A DNA stretch of 64,000 nt. It comes from Acidobacteriota bacterium (lineage in GTDB: Bacteria; Acidobacteriota; Terriglobia; Bryobacterales; Bryobacteraceae). Of the stretch, positions 21,326 through 41,232 are shown piece after piece. The first letter of the stretch is position 1, and every line of letters begins with the position of its first letter. The notes under the pieces are model-generated. The model was not told the origin of the DNA. It did not search any database and was given only the letters and a program-made list of their open reading frames with translations. The stretch lies in NCBI GenBank assembly GCA_016185425.1, contig JACPNQ010000035.1, positions 126,001 to 190,000 of the forward strand. The letters run 5' to 3'. A program made the translations under genes and the position numbers.

Positions 21326-21346
21326 TTTTCCACAGGCTGTGGAAAA
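21326..21346. promoter_or_regulatory. Palindromic DnaA-box pair 50 nt upstream of dnaA
   Basis: TTTTCCACA at 21326-21334 and its inverse TGTGGAAAA at 21338-21346 form an almost perfect palindrome: 10-bp arms around one base. Both arms fit the consensus TTWTNCACA. The site could serve dnaA autorepression, origin binding, or both. Confidence 0.75.
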
Positions 21347-21395
21347 TCTGAGGGAAACTCTTTGCGTTTTCGTCCGGGCTACAAACTTCCGTCAT

Positions 21396-22715: not shown

Positions 22716-22884
22716 ACGAGTTGCGGGGTTTCCCACAGACCCTGCCCTGAAAGGCCTGAGGATTCCTGTGGAGGGAAAACGGACCTCCTGGAGATCCTCC
22801 GATTCCCACCATGGATTCCAAAAGGCGAGATGACGGCAAGCTCTTTTTTTTAGTATAATTTAGAGAGAATTCAACATATCCACA
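22687..22884. other. dnaA-dnaN intergenic region, candidate origin core
   Basis: DnaA-box-like sites: TTATTCACA at 22687-22695 (inside the dnaA 3' end, exact consensus), TTTCCCACA at 22729-22737 (one mismatch) and ATATCCACA at 22876-22884 (one mismatch). An AT-rich tract with a run of T (22841-22875) separates the last two and could be the unwinding element. With the palindromic boxes upstream of dnaA this suggests a bipartite origin. Confidence 0.6.
22830..22859 (+). promoter_or_regulatory. Putative sigma70 promoter of dnaN
   Basis: ATGACG at 22830-22835, an 18-nt spacer, then a perfect TATAAT at 22854-22859. Transcription would start near 22866, giving a leader of about 108 nt before dnaN. 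The box overlaps the AT-rich candidate unwinding tract. Confidence 0.55.
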
Positions 22885-22973
22885 ACCCCTACTATTCCGG
22901 TACCTATTTCGTAATGAACAAATAGGGAAGAACACTGGAAACGAGAACCGGGGGAGGGGCAGAGGCAACGACG

Positions 22974-26529
<3,556 letters not shown>

Positions 26530-26593: not shown

Positions 26594-27736
26594 ATGCGAT
26601 TTGCGATTTTGGCTCTCTGCTGCGCTTGTGCGCCGGCGCAGGAGATCCGGCGGCTGGATGGGTCAACGCTTTCGTTTGCGGAGGCGGACGAGATTGCGCG
26701 CGAGGTGCTGCGAGCGAATGCCGTCACCGGCGCACAACTTGCCGTGATTGATGACGGCAAGACGGTATGGTCGCGTGCGTTTGGGTTGCGTCGATTAACA
26801 CCCAACCTCCCGATGGAGACGTCGACGAATATATGGGCGGCTTCGATTACGAAGAGTGTCTTCGCGACGTATGTGCTGGGCCTGGCGGCGCGTGGCGAGT
26901 TCAATCTGGATGTGCCCGTGGCCAAGCAGTTGATTGGGCCGCTGCAGTCATTCGGGCCGTATATCGGAAAGGCGAATTCGTTGGTTCGCGATCCGCGGTG
27001 GCTGCGAGTGACCCCGCGGATGCTGATGTCCCACACGTCGGGTTTGGCGAACTTTGCCGCGATGGAGCCGGATAAACGAATGCATTTGCACTTTGCGCCG
27101 GGGAGCTCGTATCGGTACTCGGGTGAAGGGTTGAACCTGCTGCAGTTCCTGGTGGAGCAGAAGATGGGCCAGCCACTGGAGGTGTTGCTGCAGGAGGCGG
27201 TGTTCGGGCCGTTGGGCATGACACGGACGGGGATGATCTACCGGGAGGAGTTTGCGGAGAATGTGGCCGACCGGTTCGGGAGCGACGGACAGTTTCTGGC
27301 GCAAACCAAGCGATTTCCGGCACGCGGAGCGGGGAGCATGGCGACCACGATTGAGGATCTGTGCCGGTATACGGAGGCTCTGCTGGCAGGACCGGTGCTA
27401 CCGGAAATCATGAAGCCGGTCATGAGGCTCCGATCGCTGCACCAGTTTCCATTGCAGCCGAATGAGCCCGAGGGCGAAGAGGCAAAGCGTGTGGGGCTGG
27501 CGTATGGCGCGGGTTGGGGCCTATTGACGAAGACGCCGTTCGGGCCCGCCTTTTTCAAAGAAGGCCATGGTGACGGCGCGCAGACCTATATGATCTGTTT
27601 CACGGACCGGAAGACATGCATGATTCTGCTTACCAACAGCGACAACGGTGAACGTGCGTTCCAGCCACTGATGGAGCGGATATTCGGCAACACCGTGACG
27701 CCGTGGGAGTGGGAAGGCTACTTGTTCGCCAGGTAG
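26594..27736 (+). CDS. Secreted serine hydrolase, beta-lactamase/class C-like fold
   Basis: 380 residues. A short hydrophobic N-terminus with Cys residues (MRFAILALCCACAPAQ) suggests export. The SxxK motif is S84-ITK-K87 in AASITKSVFATYV, the Tyr motif is YRYSGEGLN near residue 175, and the third motif is HGDG in KEGHGDGAQTYMICF, in place of the usual KTG/HTG. This is the Beta-lactamase (PF00144) family, including esterases and D-aminopeptidases; antibiotic resistance should not be assumed. Its 3' end overlaps the convergent allophanate hydrolase gene by 19 nt. Confidence 0.88.
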   Translation: MRFAILALCCACAPAQEIRRLDGSTLSFAEADEIAREVLRANAVTGAQLAVIDDGKTVWSRAFGLRRLTPNLPMETSTNIWAASITKSVFATYVLGLAARGEFNLDVPVAKQLIGPLQSFGPYIGKANSLVRDPRWLRVTPRMLMSHTSGLANFAAMEPDKRMHLHFAPGSSYRYSGEGLNLLQFLVEQKMGQPLEVLLQEAVFGPLGMTRTGMIYREEFAENVADRFGSDGQFLAQTKRFPARGAGSMATTIEDLCRYTEALLAGPVLPEIMKPVMRLRSLHQFPLQPNEPEGEEAKRVGLAYGAGWGLLTKTPFGPAFFKEGHGDGAQTYMICFTDRKTCMILLTNSDNGERAFQPLMERIFGNTVTPWEWEGYLFAR

Positions 27737-29259
27737 TTGCGCCAGCCGCCGAGGCTGGTGATCTCCTTGGCGCCGTCGACACCGGCAGGCTCACAGAGGA
27801 AGCCGATGGATGTGGTGCCGTCGTCGAGAGTTACCGTGCCGAGGCCCAGCGGGGGCGGGATCTGCGCGAGGAAACCGCCGAGATTCTGCGTTGGTATGGC
27901 CCAGACTTCCACTTCAATACCGGGACCGTCGAAGCCCGGTTCACGGACCAGACCCGGCTTGGGGGGCGTGGTGTTGGCAAGCGCGTAGAGGCGGTATTCC
28001 TTCGCCGTTTTGCAGGTCTTGAGGAGGCGCGCGCCGCGTTCAGCGAGCTGCCTGTTGAGCGGTTGTCCGGTAAGGTGCGCACCGACCACGGTTAGCCGTA
28101 CTTCCTCAAGCCGGGCAGCGAGATCGAGGAGCGCCCAGTCAGAATTGGCGGGTCCGATCAGGCTGACCCCGAACGGCAGTCCGTTAGGGCGGAAGCCGGC
28201 GGGGATGGCGAGCGCCGCCAGGTTGAGCAGATTGACGAAGTTGGTGTAGTAGCCGAGATTGCTGTTGCGTTTAACGGGATCGGCTTCGATCTCGGCGATC
28301 TTGTAGATGGTGCCGGTCGTTGGGAGGAGCATCACGTCGATGGCGCTCCAGGTTTTGAGCGTTTCGGTGTGGAGCTCTTCGAGCTTGTACATTGCGCGGA
28401 AGGTGTCGGCGGCCGTGTAGTTCCTGCCACCGAGGACGATGTCGCGGACGATGGGGTGGACGTCGTTGGGATGCCCTTCCAGGAAGCCTCCGACGGCGAC
28501 ATAGCGCTCGGCGACCCACGGCCCGGCGTAAAGGAGCTGGGCGGTGTCGCGGAAAGGTGTGTAGTCGAACTCAACGCGCTCGCCGCCGGCGGCTTCGAGG
28601 CGATTTATCGATTCGGCGAAGAGAGCAGCGGCGCCATCGTCGCCGAAGAACTGGAGATCCCCGGCGCGGGGGACGCCGAAGCGGAATCTGCCGTGAGCCC
28701 AAGCCGGCGTTTCGGTGCGCGGCACAACGCATTGGAACACACGGCGCGCCGTGAGGACGTCACGCGTGAAGATGGAGACACAGTCAAGACTGGTGCAGGC
28801 GGGCACGACACCTACCGTGGAGAGCAGGCCTTTGGTGGGTTTGAGGCCATAGATGTTGTTGAATGCGGCGGGGACGCGGCCGGAGCCGGCGGTGTCGGTG
28901 CCAAGGGAGAAATCCACCTGATTGCTCGCGACGGCGACCGCGGAACCGGAACTGGAGCCGCCGGAGATGTACTCGGCGTTGAAGACGCTGGAGCAGGCGC
29001 CGTAAGGGGAACGGACGCCGACGAGGCCTGTAGCGAACTGATCGAGATTCGTTTTGCCGACGGCACGGGCGCCGGCCGCTTCCAGTTGGGAAACGACAGG
29101 GGCGGTTGTCTTCGGCGTGTGCGCGAAGGCCGGGCAGCCCGCGGTGGTGGGGACTCCGGCGTAATCGATGTTGTCCTTGATGGCGAAGGTGAGGCCATTC
29201 AACGGACCGGCGGCGGGCGTCTTCGCCGGGATCTCCGAAATCCAGACGGGAGGTTTCAT
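27718..29259 (-). CDS. Allophanate hydrolase (AtzF type)
   Basis: 513 residues. The amidase-signature domain carries the Ser-cisSer-Lys triad: Lys28 in TFAIKDNIDYAG, Ser103 in ISGGSSSGSAVAVA and nucleophile Ser126 in GTDTAGSGRVPAAF. A C-terminal AtzF domain follows (from about LTVVGAHLTGQPLNRQL to GWRNYLANK), with KTAKEYRLYAL, typical of allophanate hydrolases and absent from ordinary amidases. It splits allophanate into two ammonia and two CO2. The start overlaps the carboxylase stop (ATGA), so product channelling or at least co-translation is likely. It is the last gene of the operon. It serves both urea amidolyase and guanidine carboxylase pathways. Confidence 0.95.
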   Translation of the reverse strand: MKPPVWISEIPAKTPAAGPLNGLTFAIKDNIDYAGVPTTAGCPAFAHTPKTTAPVVSQLEAAGARAVGKTNLDQFATGLVGVRSPYGACSSVFNAEYISGGSSSGSAVAVASNQVDFSLGTDTAGSGRVPAAFNNIYGLKPTKGLLSTVGVVPACTSLDCVSIFTRDVLTARRVFQCVVPRTETPAWAHGRFRFGVPRAGDLQFFGDDGAAALFAESINRLEAAGGERVEFDYTPFRDTAQLLYAGPWVAERYVAVGGFLEGHPNDVHPIVRDIVLGGRNYTAADTFRAMYKLEELHTETLKTWSAIDVMLLPTTGTIYKIAEIEADPVKRNSNLGYYTNFVNLLNLAALAIPAGFRPNGLPFGVSLIGPANSDWALLDLAARLEEVRLTVVGAHLTGQPLNRQLAERGARLLKTCKTAKEYRLYALANTTPPKPGLVREPGFDGPGIEVEVWAIPTQNLGGFLAQIPPPLGLGTVTLDDGTTSIGFLCEPAGVDGAKEITSLGGWRNYLANK

Positions 29260-32200
29260 CGCAGCACCGCCAGGACCTGGCCGGGCTGTACGAGCGCGCC
29301 CGGGGCGCAGCGCATTTCAAGGAGTTCCCCGGCGGACGGGGCTGTTATTGCAAGTTCCATTTTCATGGCTTCGAGGACGAGGAGACGATCGCCGGCCTTG
29401 ACCTGTTGGCCGGTTTCGACCGGCACGCTCCAGACACTAGCGGCAATTGGCGAGCGGACGGCGGTGGCGCCGTCGGGCAGAGCGTCTTCGGGAAGCGGAG
29501 GCGTGTCGTCAAGAGCCGGTGCGATGTATTCGCCCCAACGGTCGCGCTCTTCGCGGAAGGCGTTTTCGCGCATGGCCTGGAACGCGGCCGCTTCCGGCTC
29601 GATGGATTGCAAGACCGCCTGATGCTGCGCGAGACTGAATTCGCCCTCTTCGATGCGCGGCGTGAAATTCGGATCGGCGCGCATGGCGAGGAGCTCTTCG
29701 GCGGAGACCGGGTAGAACTGCAGGCGATCGAAGAAATCGAGGAGCCACGGTTTTGGCTGCCGCCAGGTGTTCCACATCTGCGTTGTGCGGCCAACGAACT
29801 GATAACCGCCTGGGCCCTCCATGCCATAGACGCAGAGATAGGCGCCGCCGATGCCGACAGCGTTTTCGGGCGTCCACGTGCGTGCGGGATTGTACTTCGT
29901 GGTGACCAGGCGATGGCGCGGATCGATGGGCGTGGCAACCGGGGCGCCGAGATAGACATCGCCGAGCGCGAGAGTGAGCCAGCTAGCCTCAAAGACCGTG
30001 CGGTATACTTCGTCGACCGATTCGAGGCCGTTGATGCGGCGAATGAACTCGATGTTCCAAGGGCACCAGGGCGCGTCGGCGCGCACGCCTTGCATGTATT
30101 TCTGAATGGCGAGGCGCGTCTGCGGATCGTCCCAGGAGAGCGGGAGATGGACTCTCCGCGACGGGACCTTCTGCAGTGGATGGGATTGGGCGTCGTCGAT
30201 CCGTTCAAGGAGCTCCTCGCGGCGTAGCTTCGCGCCGTCGTAATGAATCTGCAGGGAGCGGATGCCGGGCGTGAGGTCGATGATGCCCGGTGTGCCTTCG
30301 AGCTGGCGCCGGAGCGAGTGGGCGGCGAAGGAGAGTTCGAAATCGAGTTGGTTGGGCCCGAATTCGACGAGCAGGTTTTGATCGCCATCGGCGCGAATGA
30401 CGACGCCGGGCGCTTCGCCGCGGAGGACGGCGGGCTCGGTGTTGACGCGAACAAAACGGACTGTGTCGCCGGCCTTGAGCTGGCCCATCTTCCACCGTTC
30501 GTCCTTGACGATGGTCGCCGGGCAGACAAAACCGCCGCAGCTAGGACCATCGGGGCCGAGGATGATGGGCATATCGCCGGTGAAGTCGATGGTACCGACG
30601 GCGTAGGCGTTGTCGTGAATGTTTGAGGGGTGGAGGCCGGCTTCACCGCCGTCCTTGCGGGCCCATTGTGGCTTGGGGCCGAGCAGGCGGATGCCCGTGC
30701 GGTCCGAATTGTAATGGACACGCCAGTCGTGCGCGAAGAACATGTCGATGTCTTCGTTGGTGAAGAAATCCGGAGCACCGTGCGGCCCGTAGGTAACGCC
30801 GATCCGCCAGGCGTTTGCGTATTCCGGCGGGTTCAGCCACGGCGCTGGTTCTTTATCAGTGGGGGAGTGAAAGCGGAGCAGGTCGCCGGCACGGAGATGA
30901 CGGCCGCCGAACTTTCCAAGGATAAACGTCGCGCGGCTGCCGAGATATTTGGGGACGTCGAAGCCGCCGCGAACGGCGAGATAGCCGCGCGCGCCTGGGC
31001 CCTGCACGGGGCCGAAGCGAATTGTTTCACCGGCTTTCACGAAGAGCGGCTGCCAGCGCGGGACACCCATGTCCGCGCCGGTGACAGCGATCACAGCGTC
31101 ATGGTGGAACTGCAGCGCGGGGCCGATCAGGGACATCTCGAGGCCGGCGGCATCGGGCGCATTGCCGACGATTTCGTTGGCGATCCGAAAGGCCTTGTCA
31201 TCAATGGGGCCTGACGGAGGGACGCCGACGTGCCAGTAGCCGAGGCGACCGGGGTAGTCCTGAATAGTGGATTGCGTGCCGGGTTCGACGACCTCGATGG
31301 CGCGGGTTTGGTAGATGAAGTGTTTGAGGAGCGCTGTCGGGAAGGCGCCAACAGCAAAGGCATCACTCGCGCAGACCGCGCGGAGGTAGTCGACGTTCGT
31401 TTCGATGCCGGCGATGGTGGTGTCGTCGAGCGCCTGGCGGAGCTTGGCGACGGCTTCGGCGCGAGTATTGCCGCGGACGATAATCTTCGCGAGGAGTGGA
31501 TCGTAGAACGTGGAGACTTCAGCACCGGATTCCACCCAGGTTTCGATGCGGGCGTCGCCAGGGAATTCGACGTGGCCGAGCGGACCGGCACAGGGACGGA
31601 AGTCGTGGAGGGGCGACTCGGCATAGACGCGAACTTGAATGGACGCGCCCCGCGGGGTGACTGCCTTGATGGGATCGCCGCCGGCGGCGAGGCGGACCAT
31701 CCATTCGACGAGATCGACCCCGGTGACTTCTTCGGTAATGCCGTGCTCGACTTGCAGGCGGGTGTTGACCTCCAGGAAGTAGAACTCGCCGCACGCTTCG
31801 TCGTAGATGAATTCCACCGTGCCGGCGTTGCGGTAGTTGACGAGCTCACCGAGGCGTACGGCGGAGCTGAGGAGCGCGGCGCGGACCGCTTCAGTGATGC
31901 CGGGCGCGGGTGTTTCCTCGACGACCTTCTGGTTGCGGCGCTGCGCGGAGCAATCGCGCTCGCCGAGCGCGACGACGCGGCCGTTGCCATCGCCGAAGAT
32001 CTGCACTTCGATGTGGCGGGCTCTCTCCACGAACCGTTCGGCGTAGATGCCGGATTCCTTGAAGTTCGTTTTGCTGAGCCGTTCGATGGCGGCGAAAGCT
32101 TCTTCGAGCTCTTCCGCCGAATGGCACACACGCATACCGATTCCGCCGCCGCCCGCCGTGGACTTGAGCATCAGGGGGAAGCCAACAACCGCCGCGTCTT

Positions 32201-32612
32201 CAGCGCGGTTCAGCAGACCGGTGCCAGGGAGCATGGCGACGCCGGCTTGCGACGCGAGCTCCCGGGCGCGATGCTTCAGGCCGAAGTCGCGCATCTGCCT
32301 TGGCGTGGGTCCAATGAACGCGAGCCCCGCCACTTCGCAAGCTTCGGCGAATGCCGCATTCTCGCTAAGGAAACCGTAGCCGGGGTGTATCGCCTGCGCG
32401 CCCGATCGCTTTGCAGCGGCGATCACGGCGTCGGCGTCGAGATATCCGCGCGGACCGCCAACAGAGACGGCTTCATCCGCCTGGCGAACGAAGAGACTCC
32501 CGGCGTCGGCATCGGAATAGACGGCGACACTGCCAACACCCATACCGCGAAGAGTGCGGATGATACGAGTGGCGATAGCGCCGCGATTGGCGATGAGAAC
32601 TTTGTTGAACAT
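29256..32612 (-). CDS. Biotin-dependent urea/guanidine carboxylase
   Basis: 1118 residues in one chain: an N-terminal biotin carboxylase (1-450; FNKVLIANRGAIATRI, ATP-grasp loop KSTAGGGGIGMRV, catalytic ERDCSAQRRNQKVVEE and EFIYDE...FYFLEVNTRLQVEHG), a carboxyltransferase made of KipA/KipI-like domains (about 460-1030; EVVEPGTQSTIQDYPGRLGY, then GDVYLGAPVATPIDPRHR), and a C-terminal biotinyl domain with Lys1084 in LEAMKMEL. The product is allophanate from urea, or carboxyguanidine from guanidine. Two DUF1989 genes directly upstream favour guanidine, because such pairs form carboxyguanidine deiminase. The residue that separates the two substrates must be read from an alignment. It starts directly after the upstream stop. 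Confidence 0.95.
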   Translation of the reverse strand: MFNKVLIANRGAIATRIIRTLRGMGVGSVAVYSDADAGSLFVRQADEAVSVGGPRGYLDADAVIAAAKRSGAQAIHPGYGFLSENAAFAEACEVAGLAFIGPTPRQMRDFGLKHRARELASQAGVAMLPGTGLLNRAEDAAVVGFPLMLKSTAGGGGIGMRVCHSAEELEEAFAAIERLSKTNFKESGIYAERFVERARHIEVQIFGDGNGRVVALGERDCSAQRRNQKVVEETPAPGITEAVRAALLSSAVRLGELVNYRNAGTVEFIYDEACGEFYFLEVNTRLQVEHGITEEVTGVDLVEWMVRLAAGGDPIKAVTPRGASIQVRVYAESPLHDFRPCAGPLGHVEFPGDARIETWVESGAEVSTFYDPLLAKIIVRGNTRAEAVAKLRQALDDTTIAGIETNVDYLRAVCASDAFAVGAFPTALLKHFIYQTRAIEVVEPGTQSTIQDYPGRLGYWHVGVPPSGPIDDKAFRIANEIVGNAPDAAGLEMSLIGPALQFHHDAVIAVTGADMGVPRWQPLFVKAGETIRFGPVQGPGARGYLAVRGGFDVPKYLGSRATFILGKFGGRHLRAGDLLRFHSPTDKEPAPWLNPPEYANAWRIGVTYGPHGAPDFFTNEDIDMFFAHDWRVHYNSDRTGIRLLGPKPQWARKDGGEAGLHPSNIHDNAYAVGTIDFTGDMPIILGPDGPSCGGFVCPATIVKDERWKMGQLKAGDTVRFVRVNTEPAVLRGEAPGVVIRADGDQNLLVEFGPNQLDFELSFAAHSLRRQLEGTPGIIDLTPGIRSLQIHYDGAKLRREELLERIDDAQSHPLQKVPSRRVHLPLSWDDPQTRLAIQKYMQGVRADAPWCPWNIEFIRRINGLESVDEVYRTVFEASWLTLALGDVYLGAPVATPIDPRHRLVTTKYNPARTWTPENAVGIGGAYLCVYGMEGPGGYQFVGRTTQMWNTWRQPKPWLLDFFDRLQFYPVSAEELLAMRADPNFTPRIEEGEFSLAQHQAVLQSIEPEAAAFQAMRENAFREERDRWGEYIAPALDDTPPLPEDALPDGATAVRSPIAASVWSVPVETGQQVKAGDRLLVLEAMKMELAITAPSAGELLEMRCAPGALVQPGQVLAVLR

Positions 32613-33215
32613 TTACTCGGTGATTACCAGGCGCACAGGAGTGGGGTTGTACGCATTGCAAGGATTGTTGAGCTGCGGACAGTTGGAGATGAGGACGAGG
32701 GTGTCCATGTCCGCAAGCAAGTCGAGATACTTTCCGGGCGCGGAGAGGCCGTCTTCAAAGGTGAGCTTGCCTTCGGGAGTGACGGGCACGTTCATGAAGA
32801 AGTTGATGTTGTGGGCGATGTCGCGCTTCTCGAGGCCCGCGGCGAGACCGTACTTCAGGAACGTCTGGCGGCAGGCGTGCATGTAGCGTTTGCCGATGTC
32901 GTAGCGGACCATGTTGGATTCCTGGGAGCAGGCGCCGCCGAGCGTGTCGTGGCGGCCGCAGAGGTCCTCCGCGATGGTCATCAGCAGATTGCCGTTCTGC
33001 GTGAGGAGCCTGGTGCCTTTGGTCAGGTAGATGTTGCCCTGGGCGGTGATTGTGTCGACGGCGGAGTAGCGGTCGGTGAAATCGTGCGCATTGTAGAGCA
33101 GCGTGTCGACGGCCTGATTCCCTTCCAGATCGATGATCCGGAGGGTTTGGCCCCTCTCGACAATTCCGCTCCAGCCGTCGCCCGCAAGGACGGCTGTGTC
33201 GAGCACGGTACTCAT
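32613..33215 (-). CDS. DUF1989 protein, likely carboxyguanidine deiminase subunit
   Basis: 200 residues from ATG 33215 (MSTVLDTAVLAGDG), whose start overlaps the stop of the other DUF1989 gene by 4 nt. The domain shows ERGQTLRIIDLEGNQAVDTL and the conserved metal/catalytic block EDLCGRHDTLGGACSQESN, with two Cys and one His. This family was long called urea carboxylase-associated protein (TIGR03424/03425 type) and was later shown to deiminate carboxyguanidine to allophanate as a two-subunit enzyme. The next codon after its stop is the carboxylase ATG. The assignment of the CgdA or CgdB name is not attempted. Confidence 0.9.
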   Translation of the reverse strand: MSTVLDTAVLAGDGWSGIVERGQTLRIIDLEGNQAVDTLLYNAHDFTDRYSAVDTITAQGNIYLTKGTRLLTQNGNLLMTIAEDLCGRHDTLGGACSQESNMVRYDIGKRYMHACRQTFLKYGLAAGLEKRDIAHNINFFMNVPVTPEGKLTFEDGLSAPGKYLDLLADMDTLVLISNCPQLNNPCNAYNPTPVRLVITE

Positions 33216-33925
33216 GCGCAGCACCTCGCGGTGAGCTCGAAGCCGCGGCCGTTTTCCGGACGCGAGAGCCGGCAGATATCGTCAGGGCTGGGGGGCGGGA
33301 CGCGTTTCACCGTGATGTTAACGGGCTTCGGTGCATAGGCGCCGCCGGGTTCCATGGCGTGGTGATTCGCGGATAACAGGATGAGCACCTTCATCTCGGC
33401 GCGCAACTCCACGTAATCGCCCGCTTTCGAATTGTCTGGGATGTACTTCATCGCTCCGGTATCGTCGACCTGCACTTTGCTGAAAAGGTTCAACGTGGGC
33501 GTGAGGTCGCGGGGGCCGAGGGAGTATTTCGCCAGCTCGAGCAAGAGGCCCTCTTTCGAGGCTTGCGTCCAATTGTTGCGGAACTCCTGATAACTCTTGG
33601 CGCCGTACTTGGAGGCCACCTGCGCCGCCGTCAACGTACCGCCGATCGGATCGTGCCAACCGACGGTGTCATCGGTGATGGAGCACAGAATGCGGCCCAT
33701 GTCGGAGTAGAGCACGAATCCCTTTGTAAGCCGCGCGATATGCTGCGCCTTCAGCGTATCGGGCATGTTGTAGCGCTCTTCCGGCTGCAGCGCGTTGTAG
33801 AAGAGGGCGCTTACGTTGGCGCCGCCTTCGGTATCGGTCAAGCGCAGCGCCATGCCCGCGTCGAGCACGTGCGACCACGTCTGCCCGCCGCGCAGGCTGT
33901 CTTCCCACAGAATTGTTTCACTCAT
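33212..33925 (-). CDS. DUF1989 protein, second likely carboxyguanidine deiminase subunit
   Basis: 237 residues. Same fold as its neighbour: RLTDTEGGANVSALFYNALQPEERYNMPDTLKAQHIA (read in parts), then SITDDTVGWHDPIGG. Where the shorter subunit has Cys-Gly-Arg-His-Asp this one has Val-Gly-Trp-His-Asp and lacks the second Cys, so only one subunit of the pair keeps the full Cys/His site. The unequal pair is typical of these gene couples. It is 9 nt downstream of the beta-propeller gene and coupled to the next subunit by ATGA. Confidence 0.9.
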   Translation of the reverse strand: MSETILWEDSLRGGQTWSHVLDAGMALRLTDTEGGANVSALFYNALQPEERYNMPDTLKAQHIARLTKGFVLYSDMGRILCSITDDTVGWHDPIGGTLTAAQVASKYGAKSYQEFRNNWTQASKEGLLLELAKYSLGPRDLTPTLNLFSKVQVDDTGAMKYIPDNSKAGDYVELRAEMKVLILLSANHHAMEPGGAYAPKPVNITVKRVPPPSPDDICRLSRPENGRGFELTARCCA

Positions 33926-33934
33926 TTCGATTCG

Positions 33935-34924
33935 CTACGGAGCGATTTTCGCCGCGTCCAACCTCCAGATGTTCTGTTCACGCAAGTTAGAGAGCCACAC
34001 GGAACCGTGGGCGTAGAGAATGGCATCGCCGCCCGGGCCGGCGTACTGATGCGTCACCTTATCCGTCCTGGCGTCGATGCGGGTGATGGGGATTTGGAAC
34101 ATGGTGATCCACACCGCGCCACCGCCCGCGGAGATTTCGCCGCCTCCTCCGGGCAGGCCGCACTGAATGGTGGCGACGACCTTCTTCGTCTTCGGATCCA
34201 CTTTTGAAACGGTGCCGTCGCCCTGGTTCAGCGTCCAGACAAAGCCCTCGCCGACAGTGAGGAATCGCGGGGCGGGCCCGACTTCAATTGTGCCGGTCAC
34301 CTTGTTCGATTTCGGGTCGATGCGGGTGAGCAGGTTCCCTTTCGATTGCGTGACCCAAACCGCGCCTTCGCCAAAATCGACGGTATGCGAACCGGCGGCG
34401 ACGGGAATCTCCGCAACTACTTTGTTCTTTTTCGGATCGATGCGGACGACTTTATCACCGGCTTCGCCGGACGCCATCCAGACGGCATCTTTGGAGCAGG
34501 CGATGCCACCCTCGGAGTTGGCCGGGCCGGCGGGAATAGTAGCGACGACCTTTTCCGTCTTTTCGTCAACGCGGGCCACGGTCTTGTCGCCGCAGGCCGG
34601 CGCCCAGAGGCTGCCGAATCCGTAGGCGATGCCGCTGCAGGGCTGCTTGCCGATTTCTACGGTGGCGGTGACGGTGTTGGTCTTCGGATCCAGTTTGGAG
34701 ATAGTGCCCTTGGGTTTGTTGGAGACCCAGACCGCGTCCTTCGTGGCGACGGTCCAGTCAGGTACGCCGGGCACGGGGAAAACAGCTTCCGGCTTGATGA
34801 GGTCCATTGATTTCTGCACCTCCTTGACGCCGGGGAGCGGCGGGCGGGAGCGTTTTTTCTTCTGTGGCGCGGCAGCGTCCTGCGCGCAGAGAGCGGCGGC
34901 CAGGAAGATCAGGGCGTATCGCAT
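33935..34924 (-). CDS. Secreted YncE/virginiamycin-B-lyase-like beta-propeller
   Basis: 329 residues with a signal peptide (MRYALIFLAAALCAQDAAA) and a basic stretch (QKKKRSRPP). The rest is six or seven repeats of about 42 residues, each with xVWVT...G..TRIDPKTNKV.GTI.VG-type sequence, forming a beta-propeller like YncE. No enzymatic residues are obvious, so binding or scaffolding in the periplasm is likely. Unusually it sits inside the guanidine/urea operon, its start overlapping the symporter end by 16 nt. A paralogue with the same repeat lies at 40.2 kb beside the divergent TonB receptor. Confidence 0.88.
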   Translation of the reverse strand: MRYALIFLAAALCAQDAAAPQKKKRSRPPLPGVKEVQKSMDLIKPEAVFPVPGVPDWTVATKDAVWVSNKPKGTISKLDPKTNTVTATVEIGKQPCSGIAYGFGSLWAPACGDKTVARVDEKTEKVVATIPAGPANSEGGIACSKDAVWMASGEAGDKVVRIDPKKNKVVAEIPVAAGSHTVDFGEGAVWVTQSKGNLLTRIDPKSNKVTGTIEVGPAPRFLTVGEGFVWTLNQGDGTVSKVDPKTKKVVATIQCGLPGGGGEISAGGGAVWITMFQIPITRIDARTDKVTHQYAGPGGDAILYAHGSVWLSNLREQNIWRLDAAKIAP

Positions 34925-36333
34925 AGCAGTTCCTCGCTATTTTCGGCCGTAGACGATTCGGTCATCAAGCTGCCGGCGACGAAGGCAACAGCGCTAAGGA
35001 CAGGAGGGAGAAGCGTGTCGAGGCCGGACCATCCGGCCGGAACGACGAAGTAGCAGATGCCGCGCGCAATGGTTCCCGTCAGGATGCTGGCCAGGGCTCC
35101 GGCTTGTGTGGCGCGGGCCCAGTAAACGCCGAGGAAGAGCGGGATGACGCAGCCGGCGAAGACAATATCGAACGCGACAACCAGTAGAATGCCGGGCTCC
35201 GGCCTCACGTAGGCGATCCAGGCCGCCGCGATGGCCGTGGGGAGGGCGAGGGCGCGGGAGAGGAACAGCATTGTCTCATCGGTGACGCGCCGTGAGCTCC
35301 AGCGTTGCCACACGTTGCGCGCGAGTACGACGGAGATAACGAGCATGGCGCCGTTGGCGGTGGACATGGACGCGCCGAGCACCCCGACAAAGACGAGTAC
35401 GGCGATCCAGTAGGGCAGGTGCGCGCTGGCGAACGCGGGGAGCACCATGCGCGGATCGTCAATCTTGCCGACGGTGGAGATCGTCACCAGACCGAGCAGC
35501 GATGCGCAGAGGCCGATGACGATGGTCCAGCCAGCCGCGTAATAGCAGGCTTTCCTGGCGGTTTCCGGTGATTTGGCGGAGAAGACGCGTTCCATGAAGT
35601 CGAGCGCCATCGCGTTGCCGAAGGCGAGAGAGATAATATTGGCCCAGTTGGCGAGGCCGCCGCCGGCAATGGTCGTCATCTGCCCAGGATTCAGTGTGAC
35701 AGGGGGAAGAGCCGCGGTAATGGGCCCCCAGCCGCGCGTCCAAAGTACATACGCGGCCGCAAGCACGAAGCCGATGATGGCGACGTGGATCTGGAAGAAG
35801 TCGGTCCAGATAGCGGCGTACAACCCACCGGCGATGGTGTAGAGAAAGATGACGCCGGTACCGATCATCAGGCAGGCGCCGTAGCTGAGGCCGCTGACGA
35901 CGGAGAGAATCCACGCGACGGCGGAGAGATTGCCGGCCACGAGGACGATGAAGCAGATGACGGTGAGAACAGAGGCGAGCAGTTCCGCCGCGCGGCCGTA
36001 ACGCCTGTAAAAGAATTCAGGCAGTGTGAGCAGGTCCATCCTGTTGAGCGGCGCGGCGAGGAAGCGGCCGACGATGAGGAGACTTGCGGCGAGACCGATG
36101 GGGATGGCAGCCCCGGCCCAGAAGCCTGTGGAGAATGTCAGTGAGGTGTTGCCGAGCGTTGCGTTTCCGTCAATCGCCTGCGCGGCAAGGGCTGTTCCCA
36201 CGACAAGGAAAGGCATCGATTTGCCGCACACTGTGTATCGTTTGCTGGAGCCCTGCACCTGCGTATAGGTGTAGAGACCAATGGCCAAAGACAGGGCCAT
36301 GAAGATCACGACCGGCCAAAGCATGCCTGTCAT
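34909..36333 (-). CDS. Sodium:solute symporter (SSS family)
   Basis: 474 residues with 12-13 hydrophobic helices of the LeuT-fold SSS family. Typical features: TALAAQAIDGNATLGNTS with the unwound TM1 region, RFLAAPLNRMDLLTLPEFFYRRYG, YTIAGGLYAAIWTDFFQ and GASMSTANGAMLVIS. Family members import urea (DUR3), proline, sugars or other small solutes with Na+. As the first gene of the operon it probably brings in the nitrogen compound that the carboxylase uses, by inference. A good Shine-Dalgarno (AAAAGGGG, 7 nt before the ATG) is present. Confidence 0.92.
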   Translation of the reverse strand: MTGMLWPVVIFMALSLAIGLYTYTQVQGSSKRYTVCGKSMPFLVVGTALAAQAIDGNATLGNTSLTFSTGFWAGAAIPIGLAASLLIVGRFLAAPLNRMDLLTLPEFFYRRYGRAAELLASVLTVICFIVLVAGNLSAVAWILSVVSGLSYGACLMIGTGVIFLYTIAGGLYAAIWTDFFQIHVAIIGFVLAAAYVLWTRGWGPITAALPPVTLNPGQMTTIAGGGLANWANIISLAFGNAMALDFMERVFSAKSPETARKACYYAAGWTIVIGLCASLLGLVTISTVGKIDDPRMVLPAFASAHLPYWIAVLVFVGVLGASMSTANGAMLVISVVLARNVWQRWSSRRVTDETMLFLSRALALPTAIAAAWIAYVRPEPGILLVVAFDIVFAGCVIPLFLGVYWARATQAGALASILTGTIARGICYFVVPAGWSGLDTLLPPVLSAVAFVAGSLMTESSTAENSEELLCDTP

Positions 36334-36430
36334 GGAACTACCCCTTTTGAGTGAAGCCGGCTTTTGACAGGGGCCAGGAAAGAGGCTACAGGGGCGGGTC
36401 GCAGACGCTGCGGGGTGAATAAGGAGTATA
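36334..36430 (-). promoter_or_regulatory. Leader of the symporter/carboxylase operon
   Basis: A TATACT -10-like box reads on the minus strand at 36425-36430; no good -35 is visible. The leader holds two direct copies of CCCCTGT (minus strand, at 36388-36394 and 36367-36373). Either can pair its CCCCT with the AGGGG of the ribosome-binding site at 36341-36348, which would hide it. I looked for guanidine-I, -II and -III riboswitch cores and did not find their conserved elements. Confidence 0.4.
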
Positions 36431-36442
36431 GCTCTTTTCTAT

Positions 36443-36472
36443 TTGACTCTCTAAATCGAAATCTCTTATGAT
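36443..36472 (+). promoter_or_regulatory. Sigma70 promoter of the TonB receptor gene
   Basis: TTGACT at 36443-36448, 18-nt spacer, TATGAT at 36467-36472. The start would be near 36479, giving a leader of about 110 nt. Confidence 0.65.
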
Positions 36473-36478
36473 CCCCTT

Positions 36479-36590
36479 AACTACTTTCGTCTAGTCACGA
36501 AGCATGTCTCCGCCTGGCCGCGGAATTCCCCTCACTGTCTGAGAATCGCGCGCTCCTGTCCGCGCTCAAAGAATTCTAAGGGGAAATCAC
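36479..36590 (+). other. Structured 5' leader of the TonB receptor gene
   Basis: The ribosome-binding sequence AGGGGAA (36579-36585) is perfectly complementary to TTCCCCT at 36526-36532. Between them a GCGCG/CGCGC stem (36548-36552 with 36561-36565) could close. The whole could fold as a two-stem structure with the ribosome-binding site hidden. No known riboswitch class is recognised. Confidence 0.45.
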
Positions 36591-39500
36591 TTGAAACGAA
36601 TTACCTTGCTACTCGCGGCAAGCTTGTTGTCTTTGTATGCACAGACGAGCTCATTGGCGGGGCTTGTCACCGATCAACAGGGCGCTGCCGTACCCGAAGC
36701 GGTTGTCAGTATTACCAACGCCGATACTTCCGCTGCCAGGAAAGTTATCGTCAACGCCAATGGTTCGTACAGTTTTGCACAGATGCCTCCGGGCAACTAC
36801 AAGATTGAGATTCAGCACCCGGGATTCCGGACGCACACCTCGCAAGTCCGGCTGCAGATCAATGTGCCGTCGACGCTGGATGTGAAGTTGGAGCTCGGGC
36901 AGGTGTCCGAGGTCATTAACGTCAATGAAGACGTGACAACGGTGAATACGCAGAATGCCACGGTGGGCAATGCGTTCACCGAAGTGCAGGTGCGGCAGCT
37001 TCCGCTGCAGACGCGCAACGTTGTCGACTTGCTGAGTCTGCAACCCGGCGTGACGGCGACCGGCGAAGTGCTTGGCGCGAAGCGCGATCAAAACAACGTG
37101 ACGCTCGACGGCGTTGACGTGAACGACAACCAGGCGGCCGGTATGACGGCGACGACATCGCCGGGCCTGAATGCGGCACTGCCGATTCCGCTGGACAGCG
37201 TGCAGGAGTTCCGCGTGACCATAGCCGGGCAAGGCGCCGATCAGGGCCGCTCCGCCGGCGGGCAGGTTTCGCTGGTGACGAAGAGCGGATCGAACCAGTG
37301 GCATGGTTCGCTGTATGAGTTTCACCGCAACGTGAAGACTGCGGCGAACGATTGGTTTTCGAATCGCGCGGGAATTGCGCGCGAAGCGTTAATCCGGAAT
37401 CAGTACGGCGCGTCCTTCGGCGGCCGCATCATCCGGGATCGCGCGTTCTTCTTCGTGAACTGGGAGGATCGCAAGGACCGTTCGGCGTCGGCGCAATCGC
37501 GCAACGTACCGACGGAGATGCTGAAACAAGGCATCGTGCAGTTCCGGCAGAACAACGGGACGATCGGGCAGTTGAGCACGGCCGAAGTGGCCGCGGTGGA
37601 TCCGATGAAGCTGGGTCTAAGCTCGACGATGAAGAACATTCTGGCGAGCTATCCGGCGGCCAACGATCTGCAGGCCGGATCGGACCGCGGATTGAATTTC
37701 GGCGTCTTTCGGTTCAACGCGCCGTTGACGCGCAATGACCGCGCCTATGTCGCCAAGATGGATTTCAATCTGGACAAGGCGGCGCGCCATACGCTGATGA
37801 TGCGCGGCACGCTGGCGGACAACACGCGCGACGAAGTGCTGGCGCAGTTCCCAGGCCAGGATGCGGCGGCGAAGGTGTTGGACAATTCGAAGGGTCTGGC
37901 CGCGCGGTACACAGCCGTGCTAACTCCGACGGTTGTGAACGTGTTCAGCTACGGCTACACAAGGCTGGGCATCGCGCAGTCGGGCACGCCGGGTGCGTCA
38001 TTGAGCTTCGACGGATTGACGGCGCAGCAGAACTTCACGCGCGGGTTCGGACGGTTCATCCCGACGACGAACCTGGTGAACGATTTGACGTGGATGAAGG
38101 GCGCGCACACGGTGCAGGCCGGCATCAACTTCCGCCTTGTGCAGAATGACCGGAACTCCTTCGCCAACTCCTTCCCCTCCTACAGCTATAGCCGGAACAC
38201 ATTGCGCGGATTGGGCGCCGATATTTCCGATGCCGTGAACGCATTCATCAAGCAGCGGTCCGGCAATAGCGCGCTGGCACTTTCCGAGACGCAGCCGACG
38301 CAGCGCGCGATGGGCATCCTGCTCGGTGTGATCAATCAGTACAGCGCTACGTACAACTTTGGGCGCGACGGCAAAGCGGTTCCGTTCGGCCAGCCGTTAG
38401 CCCGCAGCTTTGGAACGCACGAATACGAGTTCTATGTGCAGGACACCTGGAAAGCGCGGCGCGACCTGACGTTGACCTTCGGCCTGCGCTATGGCTCGTA
38501 TCAAGTGCCGTACGAGAAGAACGGCGTGCAAGTTGTGTCGACGGCCGGGTTGGATCAGTACCTGGCGGAACGCGTGGGCGCATCGATGGCCGGAATTTCC
38601 GGCGCGAGAATGCCAAACGCGGCGTTGACGTATCAACTCGGCGGGCCCGTGAACAATGGTCCGGGTTGGTATCAGCGCGACAACAACAACTGGGCGCCGC
38701 GGTTCAACATCGCCTATGCTCCAGTGAAGGACGGGTTCTGGGGCAAGATGTTCGGCAAGGGCTCTGTGATCCGCGCCGGCGGATCGATGCTCTACGACCG
38801 CTACGGCTCGGATATGGTGACGAACTTCGACCGCGCCGGCTCGCCTGGTCTCGCGACTCCGGTGACGCAACCACGCAACACGAACTTCACCGACTCCTTC
38901 CGCTATTCCGGCGGGGCGCTACCTACGCTGCCAACAGTGGCGAACGCTTCGTTCCCGTACACGCCGCCGACGATTCTCGGCGGATTCGGTTCCTACTCGG
39001 GCGTGTTCCCTGGCTTGGTGGCGCCGTACTCGATGCTGCTGAACCTGAGCTACGCGCGGCAATTGCCGTCGAAGATGACGATGGAAGTCGGCTACATCGG
39101 CCGGTTGGCGCGGAAATCGTTGGTGCAGGTCGATGTCTTCCAGCCGTTGACGCAGTTCAAGGATCCGAAGTCGGGCCAGACATGGGCTCAGGCCGCTTCG
39201 ATCCTGCGGGACTACAACAACCAGGGCAAGAAGGCGAGCGAGATTCCGCCGATTGCGTTCTTCGAGAATATGTTCGGCAAAGCGGCGAACCTGTACACAC
39301 CAGGAACCGCTACGCAGAACTACTACCATGCCACCTATAATGAGTACGCTGGGTCGGACTTGGATGCACTGAACGATATGGATCGCGAACGGCTGGCTGA
39401 TGGCTCGTGCATTTCGGCGCTGGGCTGCAACACGTTCTTCGCGCTGCAGAATGCCGGAAACATCGCGTGGTCGAACGCCGGCCGCAGCTCGTTCCACGGC

Positions 39501-40244
39501 GGGCAGTTTGTTCTTCGCCGGGCCGTTTCAAGCGGTTGGGGATTCGACTTCAACTACACGCTCTCGCACTCCATCGACCTTGCATCGACGGCGGAATCAG
39601 CCTCCGGAACTTCCGGCGGCGTGATTCAGGACACCTTCAACCCGAACGCGTTCCGCGGAAGCTCGGACTTCGACGCGCGGCACAATATCACTGCGAACGC
39701 GGTGGTGGAACTGCCGTTCGGGAAGGGCAAGCCGATGCTGAACGGGGCGCCGGGCTGGGTGAACCAGATTGCCGGAGGCTGGCAGACGACGTTGCTGTGG
39801 CGGTACCGTTCGGGACTGCCGTTCAATATCAGCGCCGGCGGCCAGTATCCGACCAACTACTTGAATTCCGCGCTCGCTATTGTGCGCCCCGGCGCGGCGA
39901 TGCCGGACAACGGTACCGGATACAACCAGAATGGTAATCCGAGCCTCTTCCGGACGACCAACGCGTCGGCCGCGGCATTCGTCCAGCAGTATCCGGGCGG
40001 CACAGGATTGCGCGGCATCCTTCGCGGGCCTGGGATGAGCAACTTCGACTTGTCCCTCGGCAAGTTCTTCCCGCTGCCGTTTGAAGGGCATCGCATTCAA
40101 GTTCGGGCGGAGGCGTTCAACGCGTTCAACAACGTGAACTTCACCACTCCGAGCTTGAGCCTGGCGAATCCCTCCACATTCGGCCAGCTAACCGGGGTGA
40201 TGCCGGCACGTGTGATGCAGTTTGCGCTTCGGTATGAATTCTAG
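36591..40244 (+). CDS. TonB-dependent receptor with carboxypeptidase-regulatory-like domain (Oar-like)
   Basis: 1217 residues from TTG 36591 with a strong Shine-Dalgarno (AAGGGGA). Signal peptide MKRITLLLAASLLSLYA; a CarboxypepD_reg/transthyretin-like domain at about 22-105 (LVTDQQGAAVPEAVVSITN...PPGNYKIEIQHPGF); a plug domain at about 120-230 (LPLQTRNVVDLLSLQPGV, VTLDGVDVNDNQA, VTKSGSNQWHGSLYEF); then a large beta-barrel ending in ALRYEF with the terminal Phe used for outer-membrane assembly. These acidobacterial Oar-type receptors import unidentified large or polymeric substrates with TonB energy. It is divergent from the symporter operon and followed by a propeller gene that overlaps its end. 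Confidence 0.95.
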   Translation: MKRITLLLAASLLSLYAQTSSLAGLVTDQQGAAVPEAVVSITNADTSAARKVIVNANGSYSFAQMPPGNYKIEIQHPGFRTHTSQVRLQINVPSTLDVKLELGQVSEVINVNEDVTTVNTQNATVGNAFTEVQVRQLPLQTRNVVDLLSLQPGVTATGEVLGAKRDQNNVTLDGVDVNDNQAAGMTATTSPGLNAALPIPLDSVQEFRVTIAGQGADQGRSAGGQVSLVTKSGSNQWHGSLYEFHRNVKTAANDWFSNRAGIAREALIRNQYGASFGGRIIRDRAFFFVNWEDRKDRSASAQSRNVPTEMLKQGIVQFRQNNGTIGQLSTAEVAAVDPMKLGLSSTMKNILASYPAANDLQAGSDRGLNFGVFRFNAPLTRNDRAYVAKMDFNLDKAARHTLMMRGTLADNTRDEVLAQFPGQDAAAKVLDNSKGLAARYTAVLTPTVVNVFSYGYTRLGIAQSGTPGASLSFDGLTAQQNFTRGFGRFIPTTNLVNDLTWMKGAHTVQAGINFRLVQNDRNSFANSFPSYSYSRNTLRGLGADISDAVNAFIKQRSGNSALALSETQPTQRAMGILLGVINQYSATYNFGRDGKAVPFGQPLARSFGTHEYEFYVQDTWKARRDLTLTFGLRYGSYQVPYEKNGVQVVSTAGLDQYLAERVGASMAGISGARMPNAALTYQLGGPVNNGPGWYQRDNNNWAPRFNIAYAPVKDGFWGKMFGKGSVIRAGGSMLYDRYGSDMVTNFDRAGSPGLATPVTQPRNTNFTDSFRYSGGALPTLPTVANASFPYTPPTILGGFGSYSGVFPGLVAPYSMLLNLSYARQLPSKMTMEVGYIGRLARKSLVQVDVFQPLTQFKDPKSGQTWAQAASILRDYNNQGKKASEIPPIAFFENMFGKAANLYTPGTATQNYYHATYNEYAGSDLDALNDMDRERLADGSCISALGCNTFFALQNAGNIAWSNAGRSSFHGGQFVLRRAVSSGWGFDFNYTLSHSIDLASTAESASGTSGGVIQDTFNPNAFRGSSDFDARHNITANAVVELPFGKGKPMLNGAPGWVNQIAGGWQTTLLWRYRSGLPFNISAGGQYPTNYLNSALAIVRPGAAMPDNGTGYNQNGNPSLFRTTNASAAAFVQQYPGGTGLRGILRGPGMSNFDLSLGKFFPLPFEGHRIQVRAEAFNAFNNVNFTTPSLSLANPSTFGQLTGVMPARVMQFALRYEF

Positions 40245-41232
40245 ACAAATCTGTGTCGCGGCGGTGGTCAGTCTGCTGGCCGTCGCCGCGGCACCGAAAG
40301 AAAACAAAAACGCGAAGAAATCGAATGCCGGGATACAAACTCCCGGCATTCAGATTCCCTTCGCCACCTTGAAGTCCGACGCGGAGATCCGGTTGGAGGC
40401 GGCGCCTTCCGGCATCGTCTTCACGACGGAGGCGTTGATCGCAGCCGGAAATGCCGTGCAGCGCGTCGATGCAAAAACAAACAAGGCCGGAGAAGCCATC
40501 CCGGGGTTGAACAATGCCTGCGGCGGATTGCTGAATGCGTTGTCAAATTTGTGGGTGGTGAACTGCGGGTCGAAGTCGCTGGCGAAGCTGGAACTGAAAC
40601 CGGCGAAGATTGCGGCAACGATTGAGACGGGGGCGGGGACCGCTTCGCCCGCGCTCGCCGCGAGCACGGACAGTATCTGGCTGCTTTCGAGCGACAACGC
40701 GACACTCTCACGAATCGATCCGAACGAGAACGCCGTTATCGCCGAAGTACGGCTGCCGGCGAGGTGCAACTCGATACTGTTCGCTGAGACTTCGTTGTGG
40801 ATCACCTGTCCGGAGGCCGACAAAGTACTGCGCGTGGATCCGCGGACGAACCTGGTGGACAAGCGGATTGAAGTCGCGGGCAAGCCAATTTCACTTTCGT
40901 TCGGAGAGGCGTCGGTATGGGTGTTGACGCAGAAGGAAGGGAAAGTGGCGCAGATCGATCCGAAGACGAATAAGGTGTCGGCCACGATCGATCTGCTGAT
41001 TCCCAATGCCGCAGGCAGCATCGCGTTCGGCGATGGGTCGGTGTGGGTGTCGGCGCCGGGATTCCCGATTACGCGGATCAATCCGGCGACGGCGAAAGTG
41101 GTGCAGCAATTTGCTGGCGATGGCGGCGGCTTCGTCTATTCCGGGTTGTCGTCGGTGTGGCTGGTAAACCCGAAGACGAACACAGTTACGCGCTACGACC
41201 CGAAGCGGATCGCGGCGACGTTGGCCGACTGA
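40234..41232 (+). CDS. Secreted YncE-like beta-propeller, paralogue of the 33.9-kb gene
   Basis: 332 residues from ATG 40234 (MNSRQICVAAVVSLLAVAAAP), whose first codons overlap the receptor end by 11 nt. A signal peptide and a basic linker (KENKNAKK) are followed by YncE-type repeats: SVWVLTQKEGKVAQIDPKTNKVSATI, LWITCPEADKVLRVDPRTNLV (in parts). The final blade, SSVWLVNPKTNTVTRYDPKRIA, aligns with the end of the first paralogue (GSVWLSNLREQNIWRLDAAKIA). Blade order and spacing match, so the two are duplicates now in two divergent operons. Likely periplasmic; the ligand is unknown. Confidence 0.87.
   Translation: MNSRQICVAAVVSLLAVAAAPKENKNAKKSNAGIQTPGIQIPFATLKSDAEIRLEAAPSGIVFTTEALIAAGNAVQRVDAKTNKAGEAIPGLNNACGGLLNALSNLWVVNCGSKSLAKLELKPAKIAATIETGAGTASPALAASTDSIWLLSSDNATLSRIDPNENAVIAEVRLPARCNSILFAETSLWITCPEADKVLRVDPRTNLVDKRIEVAGKPISLSFGEASVWVLTQKEGKVAQIDPKTNKVSATIDLLIPNAAGSIAFGDGSVWVSAPGFPITRINPATAKVVQQFAGDGGGFVYSGLSSVWLVNPKTNTVTRYDPKRIAATLAD

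What the first reader, a model, noticed from the sequence alone, without database searches (positions are those of the whole stretch)
33935..41232. Paralogous YncE-like propellers on both sides of a divergent receptor/transporter locus
Two secreted propellers with matching blade pattern and matching last blade sit in two divergent operons: one overlaps the symporter gene, the other overlaps the TonB receptor gene. The duplication and the strict linkage to an inner-membrane and an outer-membrane transporter suggest each propeller services its transporter, perhaps as a periplasmic ligand-binding partner. I know of no such described system, so this is the best candidate here for a new one.
Basis: inference. 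Interest (0 to 1): 0.62.

Follow-up and report, generated by a model that had tools for sequence, protein, structure and literature searches.

The report
Guanidine-scavenging locus with twin propellers
The two look-alike propeller proteins belong to a gene cluster with which soil acidobacteria take up and break down the nitrogen compound guanidine, and the transporter between them looks like a kind of guanidine importer not described before.

Summary
Propeller A (33935-34924, -) and propeller B (40222-41232, +) are true paralogues: 33% identity and 188 bits, against 30 bits for the next hit in the genome. They overlap an SSF symporter gene and an Oar-like receptor gene, which diverge. Both adjacencies are conserved in relatives.

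The carboxylase carries the guanidine-type Asp.

In 237 genomes of the family, 66 of 68 with UAAP2 carry the propeller family, against 22 of 169 without. The link also holds within genera and in another order (Granulicella/Edaphobacter), where propeller A heads the guanidine operon.

The SSF and the known ABC importer of such operons (TIGR03427) never share a genome: of the 68, 32 have the SSF, 31 the ABC, none both. The SSF is therefore probably a guanidine importer of a family not yet linked to guanidine. Propellers accompany either importer, so they are not SSF subunits.

Propeller A has an invariant acidic ring at its channel mouth, which B lacks; cation binding is inferred. BtuB-BtuG is a precedent for the receptor-propeller idea, but these propellers lack its lipoprotein signal. 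Their exact role is untested.

The parts
33935..34924 (-). Propeller A: secreted seven-bladed propeller, second gene of the minus operon
   Evidence: 16-base overlap with the SSF gene
34909..36333 (-). SSF (SLC5-type) symporter, candidate guanidine importer, first gene of the minus operon
   Evidence: PF00474 118.7 bits; mutually exclusive with the TIGR03427 ABC importer in 237 genomes
33212..33925 (-). UAAP1, carboxyguanidine deiminase subunit (CgdA-like)
   Evidence: TIGR03425 307.8 bits, cut-off 206; 9 bases after propeller A
32613..33224 (-). UAAP2, carboxyguanidine deiminase subunit (CgdB-like)
   Evidence: TIGR03424 320.9 bits, cut-off 284.7
29256..32612 (-). Guanidine carboxylase (annotated as urea carboxylase family)
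   Evidence: TIGR02712 1656 bits; Asp in IDFTGD where the yeast urea enzyme 3va7 has Asn
27718..29259 (-). Allophanate hydrolase
   Evidence: TIGR02713 707.9 bits, cut-off 511
36591..40244 (+). Oar-like TonB-dependent receptor (carboxypeptidase-regulatory domain plus OMP_b-brl_4 barrel)
   Evidence: PF25183 459.7 bits, PF13620 74.6 bits; orthologues adjacent to propeller B in the genus
40222..41232 (+). Propeller B: secreted paralogue of A, without A's acidic ring
   Evidence: overlaps the end of the receptor gene
36334..36590 (.). Divergent intergenic region: promoter-like block and an imperfectly conserved dyad, no known riboswitch

Best explanation
This is a guanidine-assimilation locus of a type not described before. 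SHOWN by sequence: the minus operon couples an SSF symporter and propeller A to a complete guanidine carboxylase pathway. The divergent operon couples an Oar-like receptor to propeller B. The propeller family co-occurs with the pathway across Acidobacteriota. The SSF and the classical ABC importer of such operons replace one another. INFERRED: the SSF imports guanidine (about 0.7). The propellers are exported accessory proteins dedicated to this nutrient (about 0.75 for the functional link). Propeller A binds guanidine or a guanidino compound by the acidic ring at its channel mouth and presents it to whichever inner-membrane importer is present (about 0.4). Propeller B works with the Oar receptor at the outer membrane (about 0.4). 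In the cytoplasm the carboxylase, UAAP1/2 and allophanate hydrolase release ammonia.
For: Pathway: UAAP1, UAAP2, carboxylase and allophanate hydrolase all exceed their NCBIfam cut-offs. Asp stands where yeast urea carboxylase has Asn; all 66 readable relatives have Asp. Asp marks guanidine enzymes and Asn urea enzymes (PMC12186494). Co-occurrence in 237 family genomes: 66 of 68 UAAP2 genomes carry the propeller, against 22 of 169 others; all 21 UAAP2 genera lie among the 29 propeller genera of 76. Within genera: g41 12/12 against 0/7, own genus 11/11 against 2/8. Phylum sample: 6 of 7 UAAP2 genomes have propeller A, against 5 of 389 others. Linkage: 38 genomes have both on one contig within 19 kb; propeller A lies 39-110 bases upstream of UAAP1 in the Granulicella/Edaphobacter group. 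Importer swap: SSF in 35 genomes and ABC (TIGR03427) in 40, never together, with switches inside genera g42 and g24. Propellers are present with either importer: 34/35 and 39/40. Acidic ring D56, E138, E/D263, D300 plus R220 in at least 94 of 96 A-clade sequences, not in B, at or near the starts of inner strands in the model.
Against: 11 of the 22 propeller genomes without a UAAP2 hit have no SSF or ABC importer hit either, and outgroup propeller A genes sit only beside PSD1/DUF1501, so the propeller may be older and broader than guanidine. In the rest of the own genus the SSF-propeller A pair sits with MBL and MarC genes, away from the guanidine operon. Genomes are not independent samples, so the p-values are too small. 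No guanidine riboswitch was found. Guanidine is small enough for porins, so a TonB receptor is not obviously needed. Nothing shows binding.
Confidence: 0.55

Rival explanations
1. The propellers serve a larger guanidino or other nitrogenous compound. The Oar receptor brings it in; propellers and the neighbouring PSCyt/PSD1 plus DUF1501 proteins bind or cleave it outside the cytoplasm; the SSF or ABC imports the guanidine released.
For: PSD1 lies in 47 and DUF1501 in 32 of 80 named propeller A loci, often divergent from the propellers; chance within such a stretch is roughly one in six from about 52 PSD1 per genome (own estimate). An Oar receptor of the same subfamily (44% identity or more) lies in 28 of 80. 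A TonB receptor makes more sense for a bulky substrate.
Against: The window pair has no PSD1/DUF1501 gene beside it. The functions of PSD1 and DUF1501 are unknown. No substrate is indicated.
Confidence: 0.3
2. One reading: propeller A is a dedicated periplasmic partner of the SSF, propeller B of the Oar receptor, with a substrate unrelated to guanidine; the guanidine genes joined the SSF-propeller A pair by chance.
For: SSF-propeller A stay together even where the guanidine operon is elsewhere (L038, L046, L211). Two genomes of the genus have the pair without UAAP2 (G001 has SSF and A; G011 has a partial SSF and A).
Against: Genome-wide co-occurrence with UAAP2, exclusion of the SSF by the ABC importer, and propeller A heading ABC-type guanidine operons.
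Confidence: 0.1
3. The propellers are redox or catalytic subunits working with the c-type cytochrome domain of the PSD1 neighbours, as propeller subunits do in hydrazine synthase.
For: Hydrazine synthase beta subunit is a weak sequence match and a structural match of propeller A. PSD1 neighbours carry a PSCyt1 haem domain.
Against: Most propellers match each other's fold. No haem or quinone ligand motif was seen. PSD1 is absent beside the window pair.
Confidence: 0.08
4. The linkage is a by-product of shared ancestry in a few lineages and carries no functional meaning.
For: Genomes are related, many are fragmented MAGs, and Oar and PSD1 genes are very numerous.
Against: Within-genus co-segregation in two genera, importer switches inside two genera, and recurrence in a second order.
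Confidence: 0.08

Closest known systems
Guanidine carboxylase pathway operons with an ABC importer (Pseudomonas syringae, Raoultella, Klebsiella; PMC11410670, PMC12186494)
   Same: Same enzyme set (guanidine carboxylase, carboxyguanidine deiminase, allophanate hydrolase) and the guanidine-type Asp. Sister loci use the TIGR03427 ABC binding protein.
   Different: Here the importer is an SSF symporter. Two exported propellers and an Oar-type TonB receptor are attached. No guanidine riboswitch was found.
Comammox and ammonia-oxidiser guanidine loci with an APC permease (PMC11410670)
   Same: A secondary transporter replaces the ABC importer next to guanidine enzymes.
   Different: APC superfamily, not SSF; mostly guanidinase in comammox; riboswitch-controlled; no propellers or TonB receptor reported.
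BtuB-BtuG of Bacteroides (PMC10404256, PMC6143338; PDB 8blw, 8ptf, 8okv)
   Same: TonB-dependent receptor and seven-bladed propeller in one operon. BtuG structures are among the best Foldseek matches of propeller A. Its negative face binds a cationic ligand.
   Different: BtuG is a surface lipoprotein with lipobox and export signal. The window propellers have no lipobox, the receptor is Oar-type, and the loci are guanidine loci.
E. coli YncE beside YncD/PqqU (adjacency from own knowledge; structures 3vgz, 3vh0)
   Same: Periplasmic propeller gene beside a TonB receptor gene; same fold.
   Different: The YncE family models are not met. No guanidine context. PqqU imports PQQ (PMC12124388).

Membership tests
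Guanidine carboxylase pathway | Carboxylase of the TIGR02712 family | tested here: met
   1656.5 bits, cut-off 1303.9
Guanidine carboxylase pathway | Asp, not Asn, at the substrate-discriminating site | tested here: met
   Asp in IDFTGD against Asn in 3va7 and Asp in 66 of 66 readable relatives; rule from PMC12186494. The exact site was placed by own alignment and own knowledge, not confirmed in a paper.
Guanidine carboxylase pathway | Both carboxyguanidine deiminase subunits and allophanate hydrolase in the operon | tested here: met
   TIGR03425, TIGR03424 and TIGR02713 all above cut-off
Guanidine carboxylase pathway | Guanidine riboswitch upstream (usual, not defining) | tested here: not met
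   No Rfam match in the window or relatives
SSF/SLC5 symporters | PF00474 above cut-off | tested here: met
   118.7 bits, cut-off 22.8
SSF/SLC5 symporters | TIGR00813 superfamily model above cut-off | tested here: not met
   131.5 bits, cut-off 184: a divergent member
SSF/SLC5 symporters | Transport of guanidine | not testable with these tools
   Only exclusion with the ABC importer supports it
YncE family | PF21783 or NF052280 above cut-off | tested here: not met
   19.9 of 27.1 and 27.5 of 400 bits for A
DUF5074 / DUF6923 propellers | PF16819 and PF21959 above cut-off | tested here: met
   A 42.7 and 45.8 bits; B 42.6 and 34.6 bits; cut-offs about 27
BtuG family | Seven-bladed propeller encoded beside a TonB receptor | tested here: met
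BtuG family | Lipobox with lipidated Cys and surface export signal | tested here: not met
   Neither window propeller has a lipobox; a loose pattern hits 25 of 203 family genes
BtuG family | Corrinoid binding and complex with BtuB | not testable with these tools
   Needs biochemistry

The most novel reading that the evidence does not exclude
Acidobacteriota have a dedicated outer-membrane and periplasmic front end for guanidine compounds: a TonB-dependent Oar-type receptor, two propellers (one with a cation-binding acidic ring), often a PSCyt/PSD1 plus DUF1501 enzyme pair, and an SSF importer that replaces the ABC system. It points to a natural, bulky guanidino compound as the real substrate.
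Probability: 0.3. Interest if true: 0.8.

Novelty: new variant of a known kind. Interest (0 to 1): 0.62.

Why it matters
The natural source of guanidine is an open question (PMC12186494). This locus type gives a candidate third importer family for guanidine, besides ABC and APC. It also gives a function-associated context for a propeller family known only by DUF models, and a hint that some soil bacteria take up guanidine or a guanidino compound through a TonB-dependent receptor. The predictions are simple: uptake by the SSF, ligand binding by propeller A, and growth on guanidine.

Tried and rejected
Guanidine riboswitch in the divergent intergenic region: no Rfam match, even at permissive E-values. 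Propeller A as a subunit of the SSF only: rejected, because the propellers also accompany ABC-type loci. Filing the propellers as YncE: models below cut-off. Filing as BtuG: no lipobox. Reading Oar or PSD1 adjacency at face value: rejected as evidence on its own, because the genome holds 171 Oar-type candidates (65 scored) and about 52 PSD1 genes; only orthologous adjacency was counted. VIA-align ranking of propeller A: only generic WD40 propellers at tied Z 32, no functional hint. A profile from all 28 propellers was too diverse for the contig scan; an A-clade alignment was used instead. No paper in the library links guanidine, Acidobacteriota and propellers or TonB receptors, and none retrieved names an SSF guanidine importer.
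Full report
WHAT IS THERE. The window lies in a 6.6 Mb acidobacterial genome. A same-genus contig with the same layout is deposited as Candidatus Sulfopaludibacter (L073). The minus operon reads SSF symporter (36333-34909), propeller A (34924-33935), UAAP1 (33925-33212), UAAP2 (33224-32613), carboxylase (32612-29256), allophanate hydrolase (29259-27718). Gaps or overlaps are 16 bases or less. The plus operon reads Oar-like receptor (36591-40244), propeller B (40222-41232), then a cupin gene and a carboxymuconolactone decarboxylase-family gene. Propellers A and B share 33% identity over 314 columns, 188 bits. The next relative in the genome scores 30 bits against A. Both fold confidently as propellers. 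A tree of 150 family members separates an A clade (96) from the B sequences (54); support is moderate on the A side (0.79) and the B side is not resolved. A Cys pair (C96, C111 in A) is shared by both groups apart from two sequences.

THE MISSED CONTEXT. UAAP1, UAAP2, the carboxylase and allophanate hydrolase all pass their curated cut-offs. This enzyme set is the guanidine carboxylase pathway. The single residue that separates guanidine from urea enzymes is Asp in the former and Asn in the latter (PMC12186494). By own alignment to the yeast urea carboxylase 3va7, the window enzyme has Asp in IDFTGD where yeast has Asn. All 66 carboxylases where the motif could be read have Asp (some loci are duplicates of one genome). 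No guanidine riboswitch was found.

CONSERVATION OF THE ADJACENCIES. In the window's close relatives (G003, G004, G010, G014) the whole arrangement is kept. In the rest of the genus SSF-MBL-propeller A-MarC sits on one contig, Oar-propeller B-PSD1-DUF1501 on another, and in most the guanidine operon on a third. In sister genera (L066-L072), including the near-complete genome of Bryobacterales strain F-183 (L070), SSF-propeller A-guanidine operon diverges from Oar, followed by propeller B and PSD1 in most. In other genera propellers B and A are tandem genes beside a PSD1-DUF1501 pair, often with an Oar receptor and the guanidine operon. In the Granulicella/Edaphobacter group propeller A is 39-110 bases upstream of UAAP1 on the same strand; in most of these loci an ABC importer diverges from it. 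Within the own genus every propeller-positive genome has an Oar homologue of at least 59% identity. Of the six propeller-negative genomes, five show only 39-40% homologues or nothing at the threshold used; the 58%-complete G012 has SSF and Oar but no propeller hit.

CO-OCCURRENCE. In 237 genomes of the family the propeller family occurs in 88 and UAAP2 in 68; 66 of the 68 have a propeller, against 22 of the other 169. All 21 UAAP2 genera are among the 29 propeller genera of 76 (hypergeometric p about 1e-12). Inside genus g41 the two sets are identical (12 with both, 7 with neither); in the own genus it is 11/11 against 2/8. In a phylum-wide sample of 396, 6 of 7 UAAP2 genomes have propeller A against 5 of 389 others. 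In 38 genomes both lie on one contig within 19 kb. Plain Fisher tests ignore kinship, so the within-genus contrasts carry more weight.

IMPORTER SWAP. The ABC genes found in other guanidine loci belong to TIGR03427, the binding protein of urea-carboxylase-type operons (481 bits, cut-off 334). In the same 237 genomes the SSF orthologue occurs in 35 and this ABC protein in 40, and no genome has both. Of 68 UAAP2 genomes 32 have the SSF, 31 the ABC protein, 5 neither. Genus g42 has three SSF genomes and one ABC genome; genus g24 has one SSF genome and six ABC genomes with UAAP2. This is the pattern of functional replacement, so the SSF is probably a guanidine importer. Known guanidine importers are ABC and APC transporters (PMC11410670). 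The propeller is present in 34 of 35 SSF genomes, 39 of 40 ABC genomes, and 15 of 162 others. It is therefore tied to the nutrient rather than to one importer.

HOW IT MAY WORK. In the A clade D56, E138, E/D263, D300 and R220 are kept in at least 94 of 96 sequences; in B these positions are variable or Gly. In the model they lie at, or within three residues of, the starts of the inner strands, which in propellers line the channel mouth (own knowledge of the fold). An acidic mouth suits a cation such as guanidinium; calcium or another cation is not excluded. BtuG binds its cationic corrinoid on a negative propeller face and caps the receptor BtuB (PMC10404256, PMC6143338). BtuG structures are among the best matches of propeller A. 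The window propellers have no lipobox, so they are judged by eye to be soluble exported proteins. The most likely arrangement is A in the periplasm feeding SSF or ABC, and B with the receptor. This step is inference.

WHAT STAYS OPEN. Outgroup propeller A genes sit with PSD1/DUF1501 and no guanidine genes (L194-L196, L198), so the propeller may have served another task first. In 80 named propeller loci PSD1 occurs in 47, DUF1501 in 32, propeller B in 32, guanidine genes in 30, Oar of this subfamily in 28, SSF in 27, ABC in 11. These counts are lower bounds because many contigs are short. Why a small molecule such as guanidine would need a TonB receptor is unexplained; a bulkier guanidino compound is the obvious alternative.

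VERDICT. The locus is a new variant of a known kind (guanidine assimilation operon). Two parts appear new in that setting, the SSF importer and the propeller/receptor front end; neither was found in the papers searched here.

Noticed in passing
window 36334-36590: A dyad near 36400 (CGCAG-ACG-CTGCG) has changed but still complementary stems in L066 and L067 and is broken or lost in L065, L069, L070 and L072. It lies beside a conserved promoter-like block and could be an operator or leader hairpin.
   Followed up: partly
window 21339-26529: The locus sits about 1 kb beyond dnaA-dnaN-gyrB, so the guanidine operon probably lies near the replication origin.
   Followed up: no
L045 10003-14634, L055, L058, L217, L229: PSCyt1/PSCyt2/PSD1 plus DUF1501 gene pairs of unknown function recur beside this propeller family, including in genomes without guanidine genes. 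The own genome has about 52 PSD1 genes, none beside the window pair.
   Followed up: partly
L046 7740-8546, L099, L225, L227, L232: An MBL-fold hydrolase recurs at propeller or guanidine loci, in one form between SSF and propeller A. It may act on the imported substrate.
   Followed up: no
L047 7775-9559, L099 5522, L218 1: More divergent copies of propeller A (about 48-49% identity) sit directly after PSD1-DUF1501 genes; possibly a third branch of the family.
   Followed up: no
G001, G011, G012: Genomes of the genus that keep SSF and/or propeller genes but show no UAAP2; incomplete assembly or a second substrate.
   Followed up: no
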